The translations under genes and the position numbers were made by a program. From contig JAGOLX010000060.1 of NCBI GenBank assembly GCA_017993835.1, forward strand, positions 1-35,248: a stretch of DNA of 35,248 bases. The letters run 5' to 3'. Origin of the DNA: Phycisphaerae bacterium. GTDB taxonomy: Bacteria; Planctomycetota; Phycisphaerae; Sedimentisphaerales; Anaerobacaceae. The notes beneath the pieces are model-generated. The model was not told the origin of the DNA. It did no database searches and was given only the letters and a program-made list of their open reading frames with translations. Position 1 is the first letter of the stretch. Each line of letters starts with the position of its first letter. Positions 2 to 7,265 of the stretch are shown in pieces.

Positions 2-379
2 GTCGCGGGCGTCATCGGCAAACTCACCAAGGACTTCGTTGTGCCGATCATGTACCTGCACGCAGTCCGCCCGACCGCGGCATGGCGAGTGCTCCTGGAC
101 CTGGTCTCGGTGAACAAGGCGCGGTTCTTCTTGTACCTGCTGGTCCAGGCTGTCATCGGGATGACCATTGTGACTCTGGTCCTGATGGCCGCCTGCTGCA
201 CCTGCTGCCTCGCGGCGTGCCTGTTTGCCCTCCCCTATGTCCGCACGGTCGTCCTGCTGCCGGTGCACGTGTTCACGCGGTCCTACAGCCTGTACTACCT
301 GGCCCAGTATGGACCCGAACTCAACGTGTTCGCCCCCACTCCCGGCGAGCCTTCGATCCCGAGGGAACCCCCGATGTGA
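2..379 (+). CDS. C-terminal part of a multi-pass membrane protein (5' end outside window)
   Basis: The frame is open from base 2 and ends at a TGA at 377-379, so about 125 C-terminal residues are visible. A basic, aromatic stretch (FVVPIMYLHAVRPTAAWRVL) is followed by a long hydrophobic region with a small-residue, Cys-rich segment (MAACCTCCLAACLFALPYV). A second hydrophobic stretch runs into SYSLYYLAQYGPELNVF and a Pro-rich tail. This looks like the last two or three membrane helices and cytoplasmic tail of an integral membrane protein. I cannot name the family with certainty. The last 59 bases overlap the 3' end of the convergent DUF4139 gene. The ATG at 41 is internal to the same frame and is not the likely true start. 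Confidence 0.65.
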   Translation, partial: VAGVIGKLTKDFVVPIMYLHAVRPTAAWRVLLDLVSVNKARFFLYLLVQAVIGMTIVTLVLMAACCTCCLAACLFALPYVRTVVLLPVHVFTRSYSLYYLAQYGPELNVFAPTPGEPSIPREPPM

Positions 380-1775
380 CGGCCTTGAATGCCGTCGCAG
401 GCGCATCCTGTGGCTTGGACAGACGGTCCCAGTCCTCGGATCGCGTGCCCTGGTACATGGTCAGCGTGTACTGGAAGGTCCGCTCGGATCGCGGCGGCAG
501 GAGCAGGTTGAACTCCACCGTGTCCAAGTCCACCTTCTCGAACTCGTCGATTTGTCCAGCTCGCTTCAACGTCCAGTATTGCGTCTCGAAGTTCCGGCGA
601 ATCTCGACCTTGACCGGAACATCCCGCGTGTTCTTGACCTTGACCTCGAACGTCTGAATCTCGTCCCAGCCCGCGACATCCCGATCCCCGTCGAAGCGGA
701 AGTTCTCCGTGCGGGTCTCCATCAACACGGGCTCCACCACGATGTTCTCGACCGGCCCGAGGTCCAGCTCCGCCTCTTCGCCGACCGGGATGTACTTGAA
801 CGAGGACTGGCCCTCGTAAGACAGATGTCCCTGGGCGTCGGCCTTGCGGCAGGCGGTGAGCGTGCCGTCCGGGATGGGCGTCGTGCCGAGCTTGTGCTCT
901 TCGTCGTTGGTGAAGCTCAGGAACCGCTCGACCGCCTCGCCGTATCGCTCCTCTTCGTATTTGTACAGATTGACGACCGGAATCTCATCTACATCAAAGC
1001 TCAACAGTCGCTTTGACCAGCCGTTCGGAATCGTCTCGGTCCCTTCAATGGTGTACAGGAAGTACTCGCTGAGACCTTCCTTGACAATCTCCTTGGGCGC
1101 TTCGAGACCCGCCGCCATCGGCGCTGCGGGGAGGGCGTCCGCCTTGAACAGCAATCTCTCCATTTCCCTCTTGGGCCGCATGCCCCTCGACCGACCCTCT
1201 TCCTCCGCTCCCACCGGTCGGCCATAAGGATACTCGCGTTGGGCCAGTTGGGCGATCTCGTCGAGGATGTGAACCTTGCCGACGATCAGGCGGACCTGGG
1301 CATTCTCGTAGTCCTCGCCGCTGTTGTTCGTGACGCGGACGTAGCCCTCCAGGTGCATCGTCTTCTCGTCCGACGAGAGCGTTCCCATGTAGAAGGCCCG
1401 CCAGGCCAGACCGCTGGTCAGATACGTGATCTCGACGGGGACTTTGCCGCTCGTCCGGCTGCGGACGTCCCACAGGCCCACGTTCTTCACGCGGGCGGGA
1501 TAGGTCAGCTCGGCGATATCGATCTTGTCGGCCTGGGCCTTGGGCAGCATCTCCAGGCTCGTCGGGTCGATCAGCGTATTCTCCCAGGAAAACTGCAGGG
1601 CGTTCTCCCCTTCCTTCAGGGTCAGCGCCCGGCTGTCCCGCACGAGCGTCATGTCCGCGGAATTGTAGATCGTGAGCTGCACCGCGTCGCGAGCCGGCAG
1701 CGTGACCAGATCGACCTTGGCCTGGGCCTCAGCGGCAAACAACCCGATGATTGAAAGTATGCAAAACCGTTTCAT
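321..1775 (-). CDS. Secreted DUF4139-type protein, last gene of the sigma/anti-sigma operon
   Basis: Protein of 484 residues with a signal peptide (about residues 1-19, cleavage after AQA). The N-terminal part (about 20-75) has the pattern LTIYNSADMTLVRDSRALTL...IDPTSL, like the DUF4140 domain that often precedes DUF4139. The main domain carries TYLTSGLAWRAFYMGTL, VRVTNNSGEDYENAQVRLIV, EGLSEYFLYTIEGTETIPN and SYEGQSSFKYIPVGEEAEL. It is predicted to be extracytoplasmic and to form beta-sandwiches; the biochemical function of the family is unknown. The start is supported by AGGAG five bases upstream. It is a close paralogue of the gene just upstream (1936-3288) but ends with about 30 extra residues, reading into the 3' end of the convergent membrane-protein gene. 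No terminator is visible after it. Confidence 0.85.
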   Translation of the reverse strand: MKRFCILSIIGLFAAEAQAKVDLVTLPARDAVQLTIYNSADMTLVRDSRALTLKEGENALQFSWENTLIDPTSLEMLPKAQADKIDIAELTYPARVKNVGLWDVRSRTSGKVPVEITYLTSGLAWRAFYMGTLSSDEKTMHLEGYVRVTNNSGEDYENAQVRLIVGKVHILDEIAQLAQREYPYGRPVGAEEEGRSRGMRPKREMERLLFKADALPAAPMAAGLEAPKEIVKEGLSEYFLYTIEGTETIPNGWSKRLLSFDVDEIPVVNLYKYEEERYGEAVERFLSFTNDEEHKLGTTPIPDGTLTACRKADAQGHLSYEGQSSFKYIPVGEEAELDLGPVENIVVEPVLMETRTENFRFDGDRDVAGWDEIQTFEVKVKNTRDVPVKVEIRRNFETQYWTLKRAGQIDEFEKVDLDTVEFNLLLPPRSERTFQYTLTMYQGTRSEDWDRLSKPQDAPATAFKAVTSGVPSGSKARREWGRTR

Positions 1776-1935: not shown

Positions 1936-3288
1936 TCATCGGTTCCGCCTGTCCCAATCCTCGGCCCGGGCGCCCTGATAAGTCGTCAGCGTGTACCCGA
2001 ATGTCTTCTTCGACTGCGGCGGCATCTGGAGCGTGAACTTGACCGTGTCCAGATCGACCTTCTCGAAGGCGGTCTCGTCGCCGGACCGCTTGAGGTCCCA
2101 CTGCGGAACGCTGAAATTGCGTTTGATCTCGATCTTGGCGGGCACGTCGCGGGTGTTGCGGACCTCCACGCTGAAGACCTGGACCTCGTCCCAGCCGTTG
2201 ACGTTGCCCTTGGTGTCGAAGCGGTAGTTCTCCGTCTTCGTCTCCATGAGCTTGGGCTCGACGGCCACATCGGCGACCACCCCCAGATTCAGCTCCACCT
2301 CGTCGTTGACGGGGATATACTTGAAGGAGGACTGCCCCTCGTAGGACAGGTGCTTGGCGTCATCGACCGACCGATACACCTTGAGCTGGCCGTCGGGGAT
2401 CGGGGTCTGGCCCAGCTTGTGCTCCTCGTCGTTCTTGAAGCTCAGGAACCGCACGACGCGCAGGCCGTACCGCTCTTCCTCGTACTTGTAGAGGTTGACG
2501 ACGGGCACACCCTCAACGTCGAAGCTCGCCAGACGCTTCGACCAGCCGTTCGGGATCGTCTCGGTCCCCTCGATGGTGTAGAGGAAGTACTCGCTCAAAC
2601 CTTCCTTCACAATCTCTTTGGGCTTCATGGCGACCCCCAAAGTCATCTCGCTGAGCACTCGCCGCCCTGCCGCTCGCTCCATCGCCGGAGCAGGCATAGC
2701 GGTCGGGACCGGACGCTGCTCATCGGGCCGACCGTAAGGGTACTCGCGCTGGGCCAGTTCCGCGATCCGGTCGAGGATGTGGACCTTGCCGACGATCAGA
2801 CGGGTTTGGGCGTTTTCGTAGTCCTCGCCGCTGTTGTTGGCGACGCGGACGTAACCCTCCAGCCGCATGGTCTTCTCGTCCTGGGCCAGCGTGCCCATGT
2901 AGAAGGCCCGCCAGGTCAGGCCGCTGGTCAGGTAGGTGATCTCCACGGGGATCGGGCCGCTGATCTGGCTCTCGACGTTCCACAGACCGAGGTTCTTCAC
3001 TCGCGGCGGGTACACCAGTTCCGCGATGTCGATCTTGTCCGCCTGGGCCTTCGCCAGCATCTCCAGGCTCGTCGGATCGATCAGCGTGTTCTCCCAAGAG
3101 AACTGCAGGGCATTGGTCCCCTGCTTGAGGGTCAGCGCCCGGCTCTCGCGGACGAGCGTCATGTCCGCGGAGTTGTAGATCGTCAGTTGCACGGTGTCCC
3201 GCGAGGGCAGCGTGGTCAAGTCCACCTTGGCCGACGCGACGCCCGCGAACAAGACGCCTATCATCAAACACGAAGTTGTATGTCTCAT
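1936..3288 (-). CDS. Secreted DUF4139-type protein (paralogue of the next gene)
   Basis: Protein of 450 residues with a clear signal peptide (MRHTTSCLMIGVLFAGVASA, cleavage before KVDL). A DUF4140-like N-terminal part (LTIYNSADMTLVRESRALTL) is followed by a DUF4139 domain with TYLTSGLTWRAFYMGTL, RVANNSGEDYENAQTRLIV, EGLSEYFLYTIEGTETIPN and SYEGQSSFKYIPV. The frame stays open upstream to 3489. The start at 3288 is preferred because AGGAG sits seven bases before it, the signal peptide begins there, and the upstream extension would translate palindromic repeat copy B. It is highly similar along its length to the 321-1775 product. Predicted to be exported; function unknown. Third of four DUF4139-type genes in the operon. 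Confidence 0.86.
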   Translation of the reverse strand: MRHTTSCLMIGVLFAGVASAKVDLTTLPSRDTVQLTIYNSADMTLVRESRALTLKQGTNALQFSWENTLIDPTSLEMLAKAQADKIDIAELVYPPRVKNLGLWNVESQISGPIPVEITYLTSGLTWRAFYMGTLAQDEKTMRLEGYVRVANNSGEDYENAQTRLIVGKVHILDRIAELAQREYPYGRPDEQRPVPTAMPAPAMERAAGRRVLSEMTLGVAMKPKEIVKEGLSEYFLYTIEGTETIPNGWSKRLASFDVEGVPVVNLYKYEEERYGLRVVRFLSFKNDEEHKLGQTPIPDGQLKVYRSVDDAKHLSYEGQSSFKYIPVNDEVELNLGVVADVAVEPKLMETKTENYRFDTKGNVNGWDEVQVFSVEVRNTRDVPAKIEIKRNFSVPQWDLKRSGDETAFEKVDLDTVKFTLQMPPQSKKTFGYTLTTYQGARAEDWDRRNR

Positions 3289-3454: not shown

Positions 3455-3501
3455 AGGGGACCGATCATCTTGGATATCCACTCATACATCTCGACGGCAC
3501 G

Positions 3502-4650
3502 TTACGGACGGACGTTGCGACGGTGATAGTGCATCGTCAGCTCTTTCGTCCCCGGGCCTTTCTCGGTTCGGGCGGGCAGCTCGATCTCGAACTTGAGCGT
3601 GAAGGCGTCCTTCTTCGTGTACTGGAGGTTGCACTCCGCCATGTCCCATTGGCCGGGGATGTGTTGGATCATCGTCAGGACCGCGGGGCTGTCCTTGAAG
3701 TTCTCGATCTTGGCGGTGATGCTCTCGTCGGTGTCGAACAGGACGATGTTGCCGCTGTTGTTCTTGCGAAGCTCGATCTGGGCGTCCTTCATCTTCCGCT
3801 GGGTAACGACGATGTCCCGACTGTCGCCGATATAGAGTTCCATCTTCTCGCCGACCGGGACCAGCGAGGCGTTGTCCTCGCCCAGGAAGATCGTCGAGCC
3901 GTGCCCGTCCTGCTGAAAGAGGCGGGCCTTGCCGCCCCACAGGGCGAACTTGCCCAGGCCGCCCTTGTCGCTGTTGGTCACTTCGTAGCTGACCGGGATG
4001 CCCACGTTCTGGTTTTCGAGCTGTTCCGAGTCCCAGGGCAGGCTCGCGGCGTCGAATGTCCAGATCTTGCGGACCGGGACGTTCGGCTCGCTCAGGAACA
4101 GCATCTGCTTGGTTTCCTCATGGTCGATGCCCTGCTCGAAGGCCTCGCCGTAGTCGAGCAGGACGCGGGCCTTCTCGAAGTCCTCGCCGGAGAAGTTGCG
4201 AAGGACCAGGTAGCTCTTGAGGTCCACGAAGGTCTCCGCCTTGTTCGCGACCGCCTTGTACGTGATGAGCCGGTCGATGTTGCTCAGCAGGTAGCTGATC
4301 CGCACCGTCTCCGCGAAGTCGCCTGTGCTGCTGATCTCCCAGACCAGCGCCGCCTCGCCCGGCGGATAGCTGATGCTCAGCAGCGTTACATCGCTCGGAT
4401 GGTCGAGACTCACGAGCCGGATGGAGTCCTCGTTGATCTGGACGCCCTTCCAGGAGAAGTCCACCTTGTTCAGGCCCTTCTGGAGCGTGAGGACGCGTTC
4501 CTCTTCGATCAGGGTCGCGTTGGGATTGTCCAGGCGGATCACAGTCGCGGCCCGCTCGGGCAGCGCCACCAGCTTGATCCTCGCCTGCGCCCCCGCTGCG
4601 ACACAGAGCGACACAAATAGACCAATCACTGCAGCACGTTTTGCGTTCAT
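3502..4650 (-). CDS. Secreted protein, divergent relative of the DUF4139 family
   Basis: Protein of 382 residues with a signal peptide (about residues 1-23, MNAKRAAVIGLFVSLCVAAG then AQA). It shares the domain frame of its neighbours in weakened form: RLDNPNATLIEEERVLTLQKGLNKVDFSW, then ISYLLSNIDRLITYKAV where the others have TYLTSGLAWRAFYM, then VLRNFSGEDFEKARVLLDYG matching VTNNSGEDYENAQVRL. The segment KEGLSEYFLYTIEGTETIPN, nearly invariant in the other three, is replaced by VRKIWTFDAASLPWDSEQLE. It is shorter by about 70-100 residues. The 19-base gap after the anti-sigma gene suggests co-transcription. Exported; function unknown. It may have a role distinct from the other paralogues. Confidence 0.8.
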   Translation of the reverse strand: MNAKRAAVIGLFVSLCVAAGAQARIKLVALPERAATVIRLDNPNATLIEEERVLTLQKGLNKVDFSWKGVQINEDSIRLVSLDHPSDVTLLSISYPPGEAALVWEISSTGDFAETVRISYLLSNIDRLITYKAVANKAETFVDLKSYLVLRNFSGEDFEKARVLLDYGEAFEQGIDHEETKQMLFLSEPNVPVRKIWTFDAASLPWDSEQLENQNVGIPVSYEVTNSDKGGLGKFALWGGKARLFQQDGHGSTIFLGEDNASLVPVGEKMELYIGDSRDIVVTQRKMKDAQIELRKNNSGNIVLFDTDESITAKIENFKDSPAVLTMIQHIPGQWDMAECNLQYTKKDAFTLKFEIELPARTEKGPGTKELTMHYHRRNVRP

Positions 4651-4669: not shown

Positions 4670-6592
4670 TCAGTTGCCTATTCTGATGTTATCCCTCGAT
4701 AGCGTCTCTTGCCGTACACCATGGTATGTCGTCACTTCGTACTCGAAAACTTGCGTCTGTCGGGCCGGGACGGTCAACTCGAAACGGGCGTGGGTCGCAT
4801 CGTGCTTGCGGTATGTTGCGTCGCCGCTCGTGAGCTTCAGCGTCCAGTACGGCGTCTCAAACCCGCGAGTCACCTCGACCTCGACCGGCAGCACGTGCGC
4901 GTTCACGATCTCGATCTTCCAGGCCCGCACGTCGTCCCAGCCGTTGACCTCGCCCTTGGTATCGAAGGTGTGGTTCTCGGTCTTGACGTTCATCAGGACG
5001 GGTTTCACCTCGACCAAGCGGGCGGGACCCAATTCCAGCTCGACCTCTTCGCCGACGGGGATGTACTTCACATCCATGCCGCCGACATAGGACAGGTGTC
5101 CCTGCTCATCCGCCCGACCGTAGACACGGAACGCGCCATCCGGAATCGGAGTTTCGCCGAGTTCGTGCTCCTTGTCGTTAGCGAAGGACAGGAACCGGAT
5201 CGTCCGATCCCCCCACCGCTCTTCATCGTATTTGCACAGACTCGTCACCGGGATGTCATTGGCCTCGAAGGAGAGCAACCGCTTGCCCCACTCGTTCGGG
5301 ATTGTCTCGGTGCCTTCGATTGTGTGGAGGAAGTACTCGCTGAGCCCCTCCTTCTGGATATCCTTGCGTTCTAGAGACTCCGCCAATTGGCCGGCAACTT
5401 GCTCCTCTTGGAAAGACCAACTGCGATCCTTGTCCAGCCCGTACAGCGCATCACCCGCCATTCCACCTAACCCGCCGGTCGGTAACGGACTGCCGTAGGC
5501 GCACTGGCGTCGTGCAAGCTCAGCAATTGCATCAAGAAGATGGACTTGGCCCACAACGAGCCGGGTCCGGGCATCTTCGTAGTCCTCGCCGCTGTTGTTC
5601 TGGACGCGGACGTAGCCTTCCAGGCGCATGGTCTTCTCGTCCTTCGAGAGCGTGCCCATGTAGAAGGCCCGCCAGGAAAGGCCGCTGGTGAAGTAGGTCA
5701 ACTCGAAGGGAGTCGGACCTTCAATCTCGGAGCGGATCAGCCAGCGACCGAGTTCCCTCAGTCGCGGCGGGAAGACCAGTTGCTGAACCTGGACTTCGCC
5801 GTGGTGCTCCAGCGGCTCCAGGTGCAGCGAGGTCGGATCGATCAGCGTGTTGGCCCACATGAACTGGAGCCAGTTCCAACCGCGCTTCAAGGTCAGATTG
5901 CGCCGCTCTCGCACGAGCGTCAGGTCGGCGGCGTTGTAGATCGTCAGTTGCACGTTCTCCCGGCGAGGCAGGATGACCAGCTCGATGGCACTGGCCGGCG
6001 CAAAGGGCGGCTGCTCGTCGATTGCCGTGGCAAGCCTGTTTGTAGTGACGCCGTAAGGCGTTTCCTCATCTGCATATGCCCTTACGGGCACACTACGAAC
6101 CGAACCGACGCCGTCCTCTGCCCCCTTCATCGCGAGCATCTCGCCCGTCCGAGCGGCGTCTCCCTTGGCCATGAGCTGCTCGGCCACAGGAGGTTCCTCC
6201 ACGGCGCCCTTTGGCCTCGGCGCGGTCGCAACGCCCGGTGCAGACGGGCTCAAGGACCTCGCGTCCTTGCCACCCCGATCGGGCACGCTCAGCAGCGCAA
6301 TGCCGACGATGACCGCCGCAGCGACCGCGCCCAGCCAGGGCAATCTGTGAAACAGGATTCGTCTATTGTTCGCCCGCATCGCGGTTCGGATCGTCGCGGA
6401 AAGCAGTTCCGGCGAGGCCTTGACATCGTCGCGGAGCAGTTCCAGCGCCGAGAGCTTGCGGGCCAGTTCCTGGAGCCGCTTGCGGCAGGCCTCGCACTTT
6501 TCGAGATGCGTGCGGGCTTCGTTCGAGTCCGCCTCACAGGCCAGGTCGAACTGGTAGTCGATAAGCTGCTGATCTGTCAGATGCGTGTTCAT
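4670..6592 (-). CDS. Anti-sigma factor with zinc-finger-like N-terminus and extracytoplasmic DUF4139-type domain
   Basis: Protein of 640 residues. Residues 1-80 form a cytoplasmic anti-sigma domain with the ZAS signature H29-x3-C33-x2-C36 (THLEKCEACRKRL). A single membrane helix follows at about 85-103 (WLGAVAAAVIVGIALLSV). A low-complexity linker of about 100 residues leads to a complete DUF4140/DUF4139-like domain (about 205-640) with LTIYNAADLTLVRERRNLTL, TYFTSGLSWRAFYMGTL, RVQNNSGEDYEDARTRLVV and EGLSEYFLHTIEGTETIPN. The start overlaps the stop of the ECF sigma gene (ATGA), so the two are translationally coupled. Inference: it holds the sigma factor at the membrane, and the outer domain senses the signal. 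Its sensor domain is homologous to the secreted proteins encoded just downstream, which is unusual. Confidence 0.85.
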   Translation of the reverse strand: MNTHLTDQQLIDYQFDLACEADSNEARTHLEKCEACRKRLQELARKLSALELLRDDVKASPELLSATIRTAMRANNRRILFHRLPWLGAVAAAVIVGIALLSVPDRGGKDARSLSPSAPGVATAPRPKGAVEEPPVAEQLMAKGDAARTGEMLAMKGAEDGVGSVRSVPVRAYADEETPYGVTTNRLATAIDEQPPFAPASAIELVILPRRENVQLTIYNAADLTLVRERRNLTLKRGWNWLQFMWANTLIDPTSLHLEPLEHHGEVQVQQLVFPPRLRELGRWLIRSEIEGPTPFELTYFTSGLSWRAFYMGTLSKDEKTMRLEGYVRVQNNSGEDYEDARTRLVVGQVHLLDAIAELARRQCAYGSPLPTGGLGGMAGDALYGLDKDRSWSFQEEQVAGQLAESLERKDIQKEGLSEYFLHTIEGTETIPNEWGKRLLSFEANDIPVTSLCKYDEERWGDRTIRFLSFANDKEHELGETPIPDGAFRVYGRADEQGHLSYVGGMDVKYIPVGEEVELELGPARLVEVKPVLMNVKTENHTFDTKGEVNGWDDVRAWKIEIVNAHVLPVEVEVTRGFETPYWTLKLTSGDATYRKHDATHARFELTVPARQTQVFEYEVTTYHGVRQETLSRDNIRIGN

Positions 6593-7176
6593 CTCGTTGC
6601 ACCTATCGAATCGGGCAGTCTCTGGGCCAACGTCGCCAGGGCCCGTGACATCTGGGTCTTCACCGCGCCGACCGAGCAGCCCAGCGCCTCGGCGACCTCG
6701 CGATAGCTGAGCTGCTGGTAGTAGGCCAGGATGAGCGTCGCCCGCTGGCCGGTCGGGAGCGATTCGACCGCCTTGCGGACCTGCTCTTTCTGCTCCTGGC
6801 GGAGCAGTTCATCGGCCGGACTGGCGACATTCTCATCCGCGACCGCGGCGAGCTGGGAACCGGTCTGTTCATCGCAGTCGGTCTCCTGATCGAGGGAAAT
6901 TGTCATCCGACGCTTCCGGCGACGGGCGCCGTCGATGGTGACTCGCGTGGCGATGGTGAACAGCCAGCTCTTGAAGCCTTCGCCCCGGAAGGTGTGGGCC
7001 TTCTCGTGGACCCGCTTGAAGGTCTCCTGGAAAAGGTCTTCGGCCTGGTCTCGATTGCCCGTCATGTGACACAAATACCCCAGCACGCCGTCCCCATAGC
7101 GGCGAACCAGCTCGCGAAACGCCGTCGGATCACCCTTCAGGTGGGCGGCGATCAGATTCTCATCCGAGTATCCCAT
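6589..7176 (-). CDS. ECF-family RNA polymerase sigma factor
   Basis: Protein of 195 residues, normal for an ECF sigma-70 factor. Region 2 (about 20-85) includes GNRDQAEDLFQETFKRVHEK and FKSWLFTIATRVTIDGARRR. Region 4 (about 130-185) has LPTGQRATLILAYYQQLSY and the helix-turn-helix REVAEALGCSVGAVKTQMSR. Sigma 1.1 and region 3 are absent. It should direct RNA polymerase to a small regulon, including this operon if the ECF-like promoter at 7203-7230 is real. It is the first gene of the operon and is followed with a four-base overlap by its presumed anti-sigma factor. Only a weak ribosome binding site (GGAG about 11 bases upstream) is seen. Confidence 0.92.
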   Translation of the reverse strand: MGYSDENLIAAHLKGDPTAFRELVRRYGDGVLGYLCHMTGNRDQAEDLFQETFKRVHEKAHTFRGEGFKSWLFTIATRVTIDGARRRKRRMTISLDQETDCDEQTGSQLAAVADENVASPADELLRQEQKEQVRKAVESLPTGQRATLILAYYQQLSYREVAEALGCSVGAVKTQMSRALATLAQRLPDSIGATR

Positions 7177-7202: not shown

Positions 7203-7230
7203 TAGACGAGCGTCGCAGCGGTACGGTTGA
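7203..7230 (-). promoter_or_regulatory. Candidate ECF-type promoter, possibly autoregulated
   Basis: On the minus strand a -35-like TCAACC (7225-7230, containing the AAC typical of ECF promoters) is followed after 16 bases by CGTCTA (7203-7208), like the CGTC -10 core of many ECF sigma factors. The predicted start would lie about 20 bases before the sigma factor ATG. The match is by eye; the sigma-specific consensus is not known. Confidence 0.42.
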
Positions 7231-7265
7231 CCGGTCGTTGGTAAATCCTCTGTAAAACGACGAGC

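What the first reader, a model, noticed from the sequence alone, without database searches (positions are those of the whole stretch)
4670..6592. ZAS-type anti-sigma factor fused to a complete DUF4140/DUF4139-like domain
Seen: HxxxCxxC at residues 29-36, one membrane helix at about 85-103, a long linker, then over 430 residues matching the secreted neighbours nearly end to end. Most anti-sigma factors have short or unrelated outer domains. The outer domain keeps all the motifs conserved in the secreted proteins, so it is probably functional rather than a relic.
Basis: seen in the sequence. Interest (0 to 1): 0.62.

Follow-up and report, generated by a model that had tools for sequence, protein, structure and literature searches.

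The report
Anti-sigma receptor controlling secreted serpin regulon
In a group of little-studied Planctomycetota bacteria, a copy of a secreted protein of unknown function has been joined to a membrane-bound switch that holds back a gene-activating (sigma) factor, and the sequences suggest that the switch controls the secreted relatives together with a secreted protease inhibitor, so it may sense attack by proteases outside the cell.

Summary
Window 4670-6592(-) encodes one 640-residue protein: an invariant zinc anti-sigma head (H4, H29xxxC33xxC36), one membrane helix, a variable linker and a full DUF4139-type outer domain. There is no DUF4140 match. It is not an assembly join: the same ECF-fusion-PA-PB operon occurs in more than 50 loci (Phycisphaerae, Sedimentisphaerales, Kiritimatiellota/Lentisphaerota bins). 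The fused outer domains form one clade, sister to the secreted paralogues downstream, under similar purifying selection.

New here: (1) the sigma gene carries a near-invariant promoter, GTCAACC-N16-YGTCT, in 43 loci. (2) A refined form of it found 29 sites in 30 genomes, 0 for the reversed control: 18 precede the ECF gene, 6 a secreted serpin with an inhibitory-type hinge, 2 a stand-alone secreted DUF4139 gene. Serpins also sit inside the operon in several genomes. (3) A six-residue motif, PFAPAS, is invariant at the linker/outer-domain junction of fusions and absent from all 153 secreted paralogues examined.

Best reading: a receptor-type membrane anti-sigma factor, its sensor derived from its own secreted effector, controls a small envelope regulon that includes a protease inhibitor. 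That the input is proteolysis is inference. Nothing was tested experimentally.

The parts
7204..7231 (-). ECF-type promoter GTCAACC-N16-CGTCT, 28 bp before the ECF start codon
   Evidence: only such match in the window; same place and same 28-nt length in 43 loci
6589..7176 (-). ECF sigma factor, 195 aa
   Evidence: Sigma70_r2 63 bits, Sigma70_r4_2 62 bits; 4-bp overlap with the fusion gene
4670..6592 (-). anti-sigma/DUF4139 fusion, 640 aa
6443..6592 (-). cytoplasmic zinc anti-sigma head (residues 1-50; H4, H29, C33, C36)
   Evidence: invariant residues; ungapped weak match to ChrR 4-76 and match to RsiW; zf-HC2 in relatives
6284..6340 (-). membrane helix (residues 85-103)
   Evidence: hydropathy up to 2.2; helix 88-101 in the model
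6008..6280 (-). disordered, fast-evolving linker (residues 105-195)
   Evidence: pLDDT <50 over 102-188; mean top-residue frequency 0.18 over residues 105-189; variable length
5990..6007 (-). fusion-specific invariant motif PFAPAS (residues 196-201)
   Evidence: invariant in A1; FAPAS in 57 membrane-anchored fusions, 0 of 153 secreted paralogues
4718..5989 (-). DUF4139-type outer domain, mostly beta (residues 202-625)
   Evidence: PF13598 at 297-622; outer-domain model mean pLDDT 86.8
3502..4650 (-). PA: secreted divergent DUF4139 relative, 382 aa
   Evidence: DUF4139 subthreshold, 12 bits; signal peptide visible; conserved in operon
1936..3288 (-). PB: secreted DUF4139 protein (likely start at internal ATG with signal peptide; longest ORF begins at 3489)
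   Evidence: PF13598 50.7 bits; N-termini of orthologues
321..1775 (-). PC: lineage-specific duplicate of PB, secreted, 484 aa
   Evidence: PF13598 44.7 bits; tree

Best explanation
It is a membrane-anchored, receptor-type anti-sigma factor. The zinc head binds and silences the co-transcribed ECF sigma factor in the cytoplasm; the DUF4139-type outer domain, derived long ago from a duplicate of the secreted PB protein, sits outside the inner membrane on a flexible linker and acts as sensor. A signal there leads to loss of the anti-sigma (most likely regulated proteolysis: a cut in the linker, then RseP in the membrane) and frees the sigma factor. It then transcribes its own operon (sigma, anti-sigma, secreted DUF4139 proteins PA/PB/PC) and, in many genomes, a secreted or lipid-anchored serpin, a protease inhibitor. 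Shown by sequence: gene order, promoter class, shared promoters, single origin, conservation. Inferred from the known families: sigma binding and proteolytic release. Inferred from the regulon only: that the signal is proteolytic attack on the envelope (cutting of the exposed linker), with the serpin closing a negative feedback loop; I give that particular input about 0.3. The confidence below is for the module and its regulon, whatever the input.
For: Operon order and 4-bp overlap; invariant HHCC head; single membrane helix; promoter GTCAACC-N16-YGTCT at exactly 28 nt in 43 loci, none before the fusion, PA, PB or PC genes of the operons (best dyad in 31 of 57 upstream regions, 3 at most in shuffles). 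Regulon: refined pattern 29 hits in 30 genomes, 0 reversed controls; 18 ECF, 6 serpin, 2 secreted PB, 3 other. Of 13 stand-alone serpins in relatives, 6 have an exact site in the 450 bp upstream of the domain, against a shuffle mean of 0.004 genomes; inner bases that were not part of that search are shared with the operon sites in 5 of the 6. Serpins inside the operon in L067, L069, L071, L072, L076, and by position in G026 and G042. The 11 stand-alone and 5 in-operon serpins whose loop was read carry the hinge EEGTEAAA. RseP homologue in the genome. Linker disordered and fast-evolving.
Against: No experiment. Of the 30 genomes searched 10 had no detected serpin, and several serpins have no site before them, so the serpin is not a universal member; some absences may be incomplete bins. 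What DUF4139 proteins bind is unknown. Site-1 cleavage is not shown. Nearly all genomes are metagenome bins.
Confidence: 0.65

Rival explanations
1. Rival on the input: ligand receptor. The outer domain binds a specific ligand (for instance a polymer or a protein, also bound by the secreted PA/PB) and binding exposes a cleavage site, as for RsiV with lysozyme or RsgI with polysaccharides; the serpin only protects the secreted proteins.
For: The sensor is homologous to the secreted effectors, the logic described for RsgI (PMC12203970); the outer domain is far more conserved than the linker.
Against: No ligand or binding site known; structure matches gave no functional lead.
Confidence: 0.4
2. 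Rival on the input: titration. The secreted PA/PB proteins bind the outer domain and keep the anti-sigma intact; their loss or engagement elsewhere triggers the response.
For: Sensor and secreted proteins are paralogues made from one operon; in L066 the C-terminal halves of the sensor and of a secreted paralogue have been exchanged, so the halves are compatible.
Against: No direct evidence of complex formation; the exchange is a single case in one metagenome contig.
Confidence: 0.2
3. Relic fusion: the outer domain is passive baggage and the head senses an internal cue such as redox state through its zinc site.
For: Zinc heads in soluble anti-sigmas can be sensors of internal redox conditions (PMC7406223).
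Against: Outer domain conserved from Phycisphaerae to Kiritimatiellota with dN/dS 0.13-0.21 in four species pairs; retained where head and sigma factor have been replaced (L085).
Confidence: 0.05
4. Assembly or gene-calling artefact joining two genes.
For: None found.
Against: Full-length orthologues in many independent assemblies with head and outer domain in one open frame.
Confidence: 0.01

Closest known systems
RsgI anti-sigma factors of Clostridium thermocellum (PMC12203970)
   Same: Membrane anti-sigma with an outer sensor domain of a kind also found in secreted proteins of its regulon; stepwise proteolysis
   Different: Partner there is SigI, here an ECF factor; no RsgI-type or carbohydrate-binding domain detected here; outer domain is DUF4139
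RsiV of Bacillus subtilis (PMC5014341, PMC4183432)
   Same: ECF anti-sigma whose outer domain is a receptor for an external protein and controls its cleavage
   Different: Unrelated outer domain; ligand here unknown
Class I anti-sigma factors with Hx3Cx2C (ChrR, RsiW; PMC7406223)
   Same: Zinc head, encoded next to its ECF factor
   Different: Large sensor domain homologous to the secreted neighbours
DUF4139 / MuiA-like proteins (PF13598, TIGR02231)
   Same: Outer domain is a DUF4139 member by Pfam score
   Different: Secreted PA-PB pairs elsewhere in the phylum have no sigma factor beside them; TIGR02231 far below cut-off; no DUF4140 match

Membership tests
Class I (ASDI/ZAS) anti-sigma factors | Hx3Cx2C motif across helices 2 and 3 (plus upstream His) | tested here: met
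   H4, H29, C33, C36 invariant in 43 fusions
Class I (ASDI/ZAS) anti-sigma factors | Profile match of the head | tested here: inconclusive
   zf-HC2 in 27 relatives, best E 1.7e-5; antisigma NF052375 25 bits, below cut-off; RsiW/ChrR E 0.1-0.6
Class I (ASDI/ZAS) anti-sigma factors | Encoded next to its ECF sigma factor | tested here: met
   4-bp overlap in the window; synteny across loci
Class I (ASDI/ZAS) anti-sigma factors | Binds and inhibits the ECF factor | not testable with these tools
   needs an experiment
DUF4139 (PF13598) | Score over Pfam's gathering cut-off | tested here: met
   38.3 vs 31.8 bits; all 83 members of A2 hit it at E up to 10
DUF4140 (PF13600) | Match in the N-terminal part of the outer domain | tested here: not met
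   no hit in the window protein at E up to 1 or for its outer domain at E up to 10; structural equivalence not tested
RsgI family | RsgI-type head and SigI partner | tested here: not met
   Pfam lists only DUF4139 for the fusion and ECF-type sigma-70 regions 2 and 4 for the partner
Ribophorin I / Ost1 fold | Same fold by structural superposition | tested here: inconclusive
   Foldseek E 1.8e-7 to 3e-6 but TM 0.12-0.18, rmsd ~25; not in the VIA-align top 50; PF04597 finds nothing in this genome

The most novel reading that the evidence does not exclude
A protease-sensing anti-sigma system: the exposed linker (with the invariant PFAPAS junction) is cut by proteases that reach the envelope, which frees the ECF factor and induces a serpin and secreted DUF4139 proteins that stop the proteases, a homeostatic protease/antiprotease loop.
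Probability: 0.3. Interest if true: 0.85.

Novelty: new variant of a known kind. Interest (0 to 1): 0.64.

Why it matters
It gives DUF4139 proteins, a family without known function, a testable setting: a defined promoter, a small regulon and a protease-inhibitor partner. It also offers a possible case of transcriptional control of bacterial serpins, about whose regulation little is known (PMC10090351), and a sensor that evolved from the effector it controls.

Tried and rejected
Assembly error (rejected). DUF4140 domain (no match). Recent copy of a neighbour (rejected by trees; quick searches without bootstrap). Broad regulon: the loose pattern with one mismatch shows no excess over the reversed control in the own genome; only the refined pattern is specific. 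It was refined after seeing operon and serpin sites, so part of its yield is by construction; the shuffle test used the unrefined pattern. Signal peptidase cut at PFAPAS: unlikely, since the motif lies about 90 residues from the membrane helix. Ribophorin I/Ost1 similarity: repeated in two models of the same domain but poor superposition, left as a lead. Other exact own-genome promoter matches (C66, C71, C112) lie inside long open frames and were not pursued.

Full report
Observation. The protein at 4670-6592(-) is as described: 640 residues, zinc-type anti-sigma head, one membrane helix, linker, and an outer domain that matches the secreted neighbours over about 435 residues at 53% identity. 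DUF4139 is over Pfam's cut-off; DUF4140 is not found. The gene overlaps the ECF sigma gene by 4 bp. The head is weak in profile searches of the single protein, but its four metal-site residues are invariant in 43 relatives and it aligns without gaps with ChrR.

Distribution and origin. Full-length fusions at 43-74% identity occur in many genomes. The order ECF, fusion, PA, PB (and PC, a later duplicate of PB) recurs across Phycisphaerae, Sedimentisphaerales and records named Kiritimatiellae, Pontiellaceae and Lentisphaerae; in part of the loci extra genes stand between fusion and PA, or PA is not seen. In more distant Planctomycetota the secreted PA-PB pair exists without a detected sigma factor or fusion. 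A tree with those pairs puts the fused outer domains in one clade (SH-aLRT 99) beside the secreted PB/PC of the same group: one duplication and one fusion, long ago. Two exceptions in the larger tree come from L066, where the C-terminal halves of the fusion and of the next secreted gene have been exchanged; one misplaced row (L080) has a very long branch and probably reflects my trimming. In L085 another ECF factor and a head without the zinc motif are joined to the same kind of outer domain, so head and sensor are modular.

Constraint. dN/dS of the outer domain is 0.13-0.21 in four species pairs, like secreted PB (0.12-0.20); PA is slower (0.07-0.11). The linker is faster (0.21-0.51, saturated in one pair). 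AlphaFold2 gives most of the linker pLDDT under 50, and the outer domain, modelled alone with 83 aligned sequences, 86.8 on average. At the end of the variable linker PFAPAS is invariant in the 43 aligned fusions; FAPAS is found in 57 anchored proteins, including the swapped-head L085, and is absent in 153 secreted paralogues and in two secreted copies of the sensor type (L016, L076); L074, cut by the contig end, has a variant. Its role is unknown.

Promoter. Upstream regions of the ECF genes share GTCAACC-N16-YGTCT; the best dyads occur in 31 of 57 upstream regions and in at most 3 of shuffled ones. With spacers of 14-18 allowed, all 43 sites before ECF genes have a spacer of exactly 16; only 4 other matches lie in 770 kb of the same loci, and none is before the fusion, PA, PB or PC gene. 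In the window it is 7204-7231(-).

Regulon. In the window's genome a further site on contig C5 lies 48 bp before the likely start of a serpin with a signal peptide. Serpins are also inside the operon, between fusion and PA, in five loci, and directly before PA in L136, a genome in which no fusion was found. Among 13 stand-alone serpins in related genomes, 6 have an exact site in the 450 bp upstream; shuffles give a mean of 0.004 and at most 1. Four of the six are from the window's genus, so they are not independent; G025 and G036 are other genera. Five of the six share the inner bases G-[CG]-T-A-N-N-A-T with the operon sites, which had not been searched for; G025 does not. A pattern with these bases, one mismatch allowed, gives 29 sites in 30 genomes and none for the reversed control: 18 before ECF genes, 6 before serpins, 2 before stand-alone secreted PB genes, 3 others. 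Because the pattern was refined on operon and serpin sites, its count is a description, not an independent test. The serpins whose loop could be read (11 stand-alone, 5 in-operon) carry the hinge EEGTEAAA, typical of inhibitory serpins (meaning from general knowledge).

Mechanism. A head that holds the ECF factor, a membrane helix, and release by stepwise proteolysis follow from the known behaviour of such proteins; an RseP homologue is present. That the outer domain senses is inferred from its conservation and position. That it senses proteolysis is inferred from the serpin in the regulon and the exposed linker; a ligand receptor of RsiV or RsgI type is as likely or more so. Papers on RsgI and on class I anti-sigma factors were consulted. 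Text searches found only two papers that mention DUF4139, by title neither on this system, and none that by title concerns sigma/anti-sigma control of serpins; the library holds only open papers.

Limits. No expression data; nearly all genomes are bins; trees are quick searches; DUF4139 function and ligand unknown; the ECF group was not assigned.

Noticed in passing
L066:7989-11208: Anti-sigma fusion and the next secreted paralogue have exchanged C-terminal halves; one metagenome contig.
   Followed up: partly
L085:1411-3189 (same as L020, G033): Different ECF factor and a head without zinc motif joined to the same outer domain and PFAPAS motif.
   Followed up: partly
L040:9969-11264, L049:9853-11226: Gene between fusion and PA coding for a secreted protein with HEVGH, possibly a metallopeptidase; no Pfam match in L040.
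   Followed up: partly
L130:6033-7163(-), L138:6112-7296(-): Histidine kinase gene directly before PA in loci without the fusion: perhaps another regulator for the PA-PB pair.
   Followed up: partly
window:4670-6592 outer domain model: Foldseek's best solved-structure matches are all oligosaccharyltransferase entries (Ost1/ribophorin I by my reading of the chains), E 8e-9 to 3e-6, but with poor superposition.
   Followed up: partly
L076:12852-14279, L016:3-1484: Sensor-type outer domains that have become secreted proteins and lack PFAPAS.
   Followed up: partly
L080:7394-10495, L073:5797-8214: Unusually long fusions (1034 and 806 aa) with extra sequence not examined.
   Followed up: no
window:7354-8961(-): Isochorismatase-like and ThuA domains in one protein upstream of the operon.
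   Followed up: no
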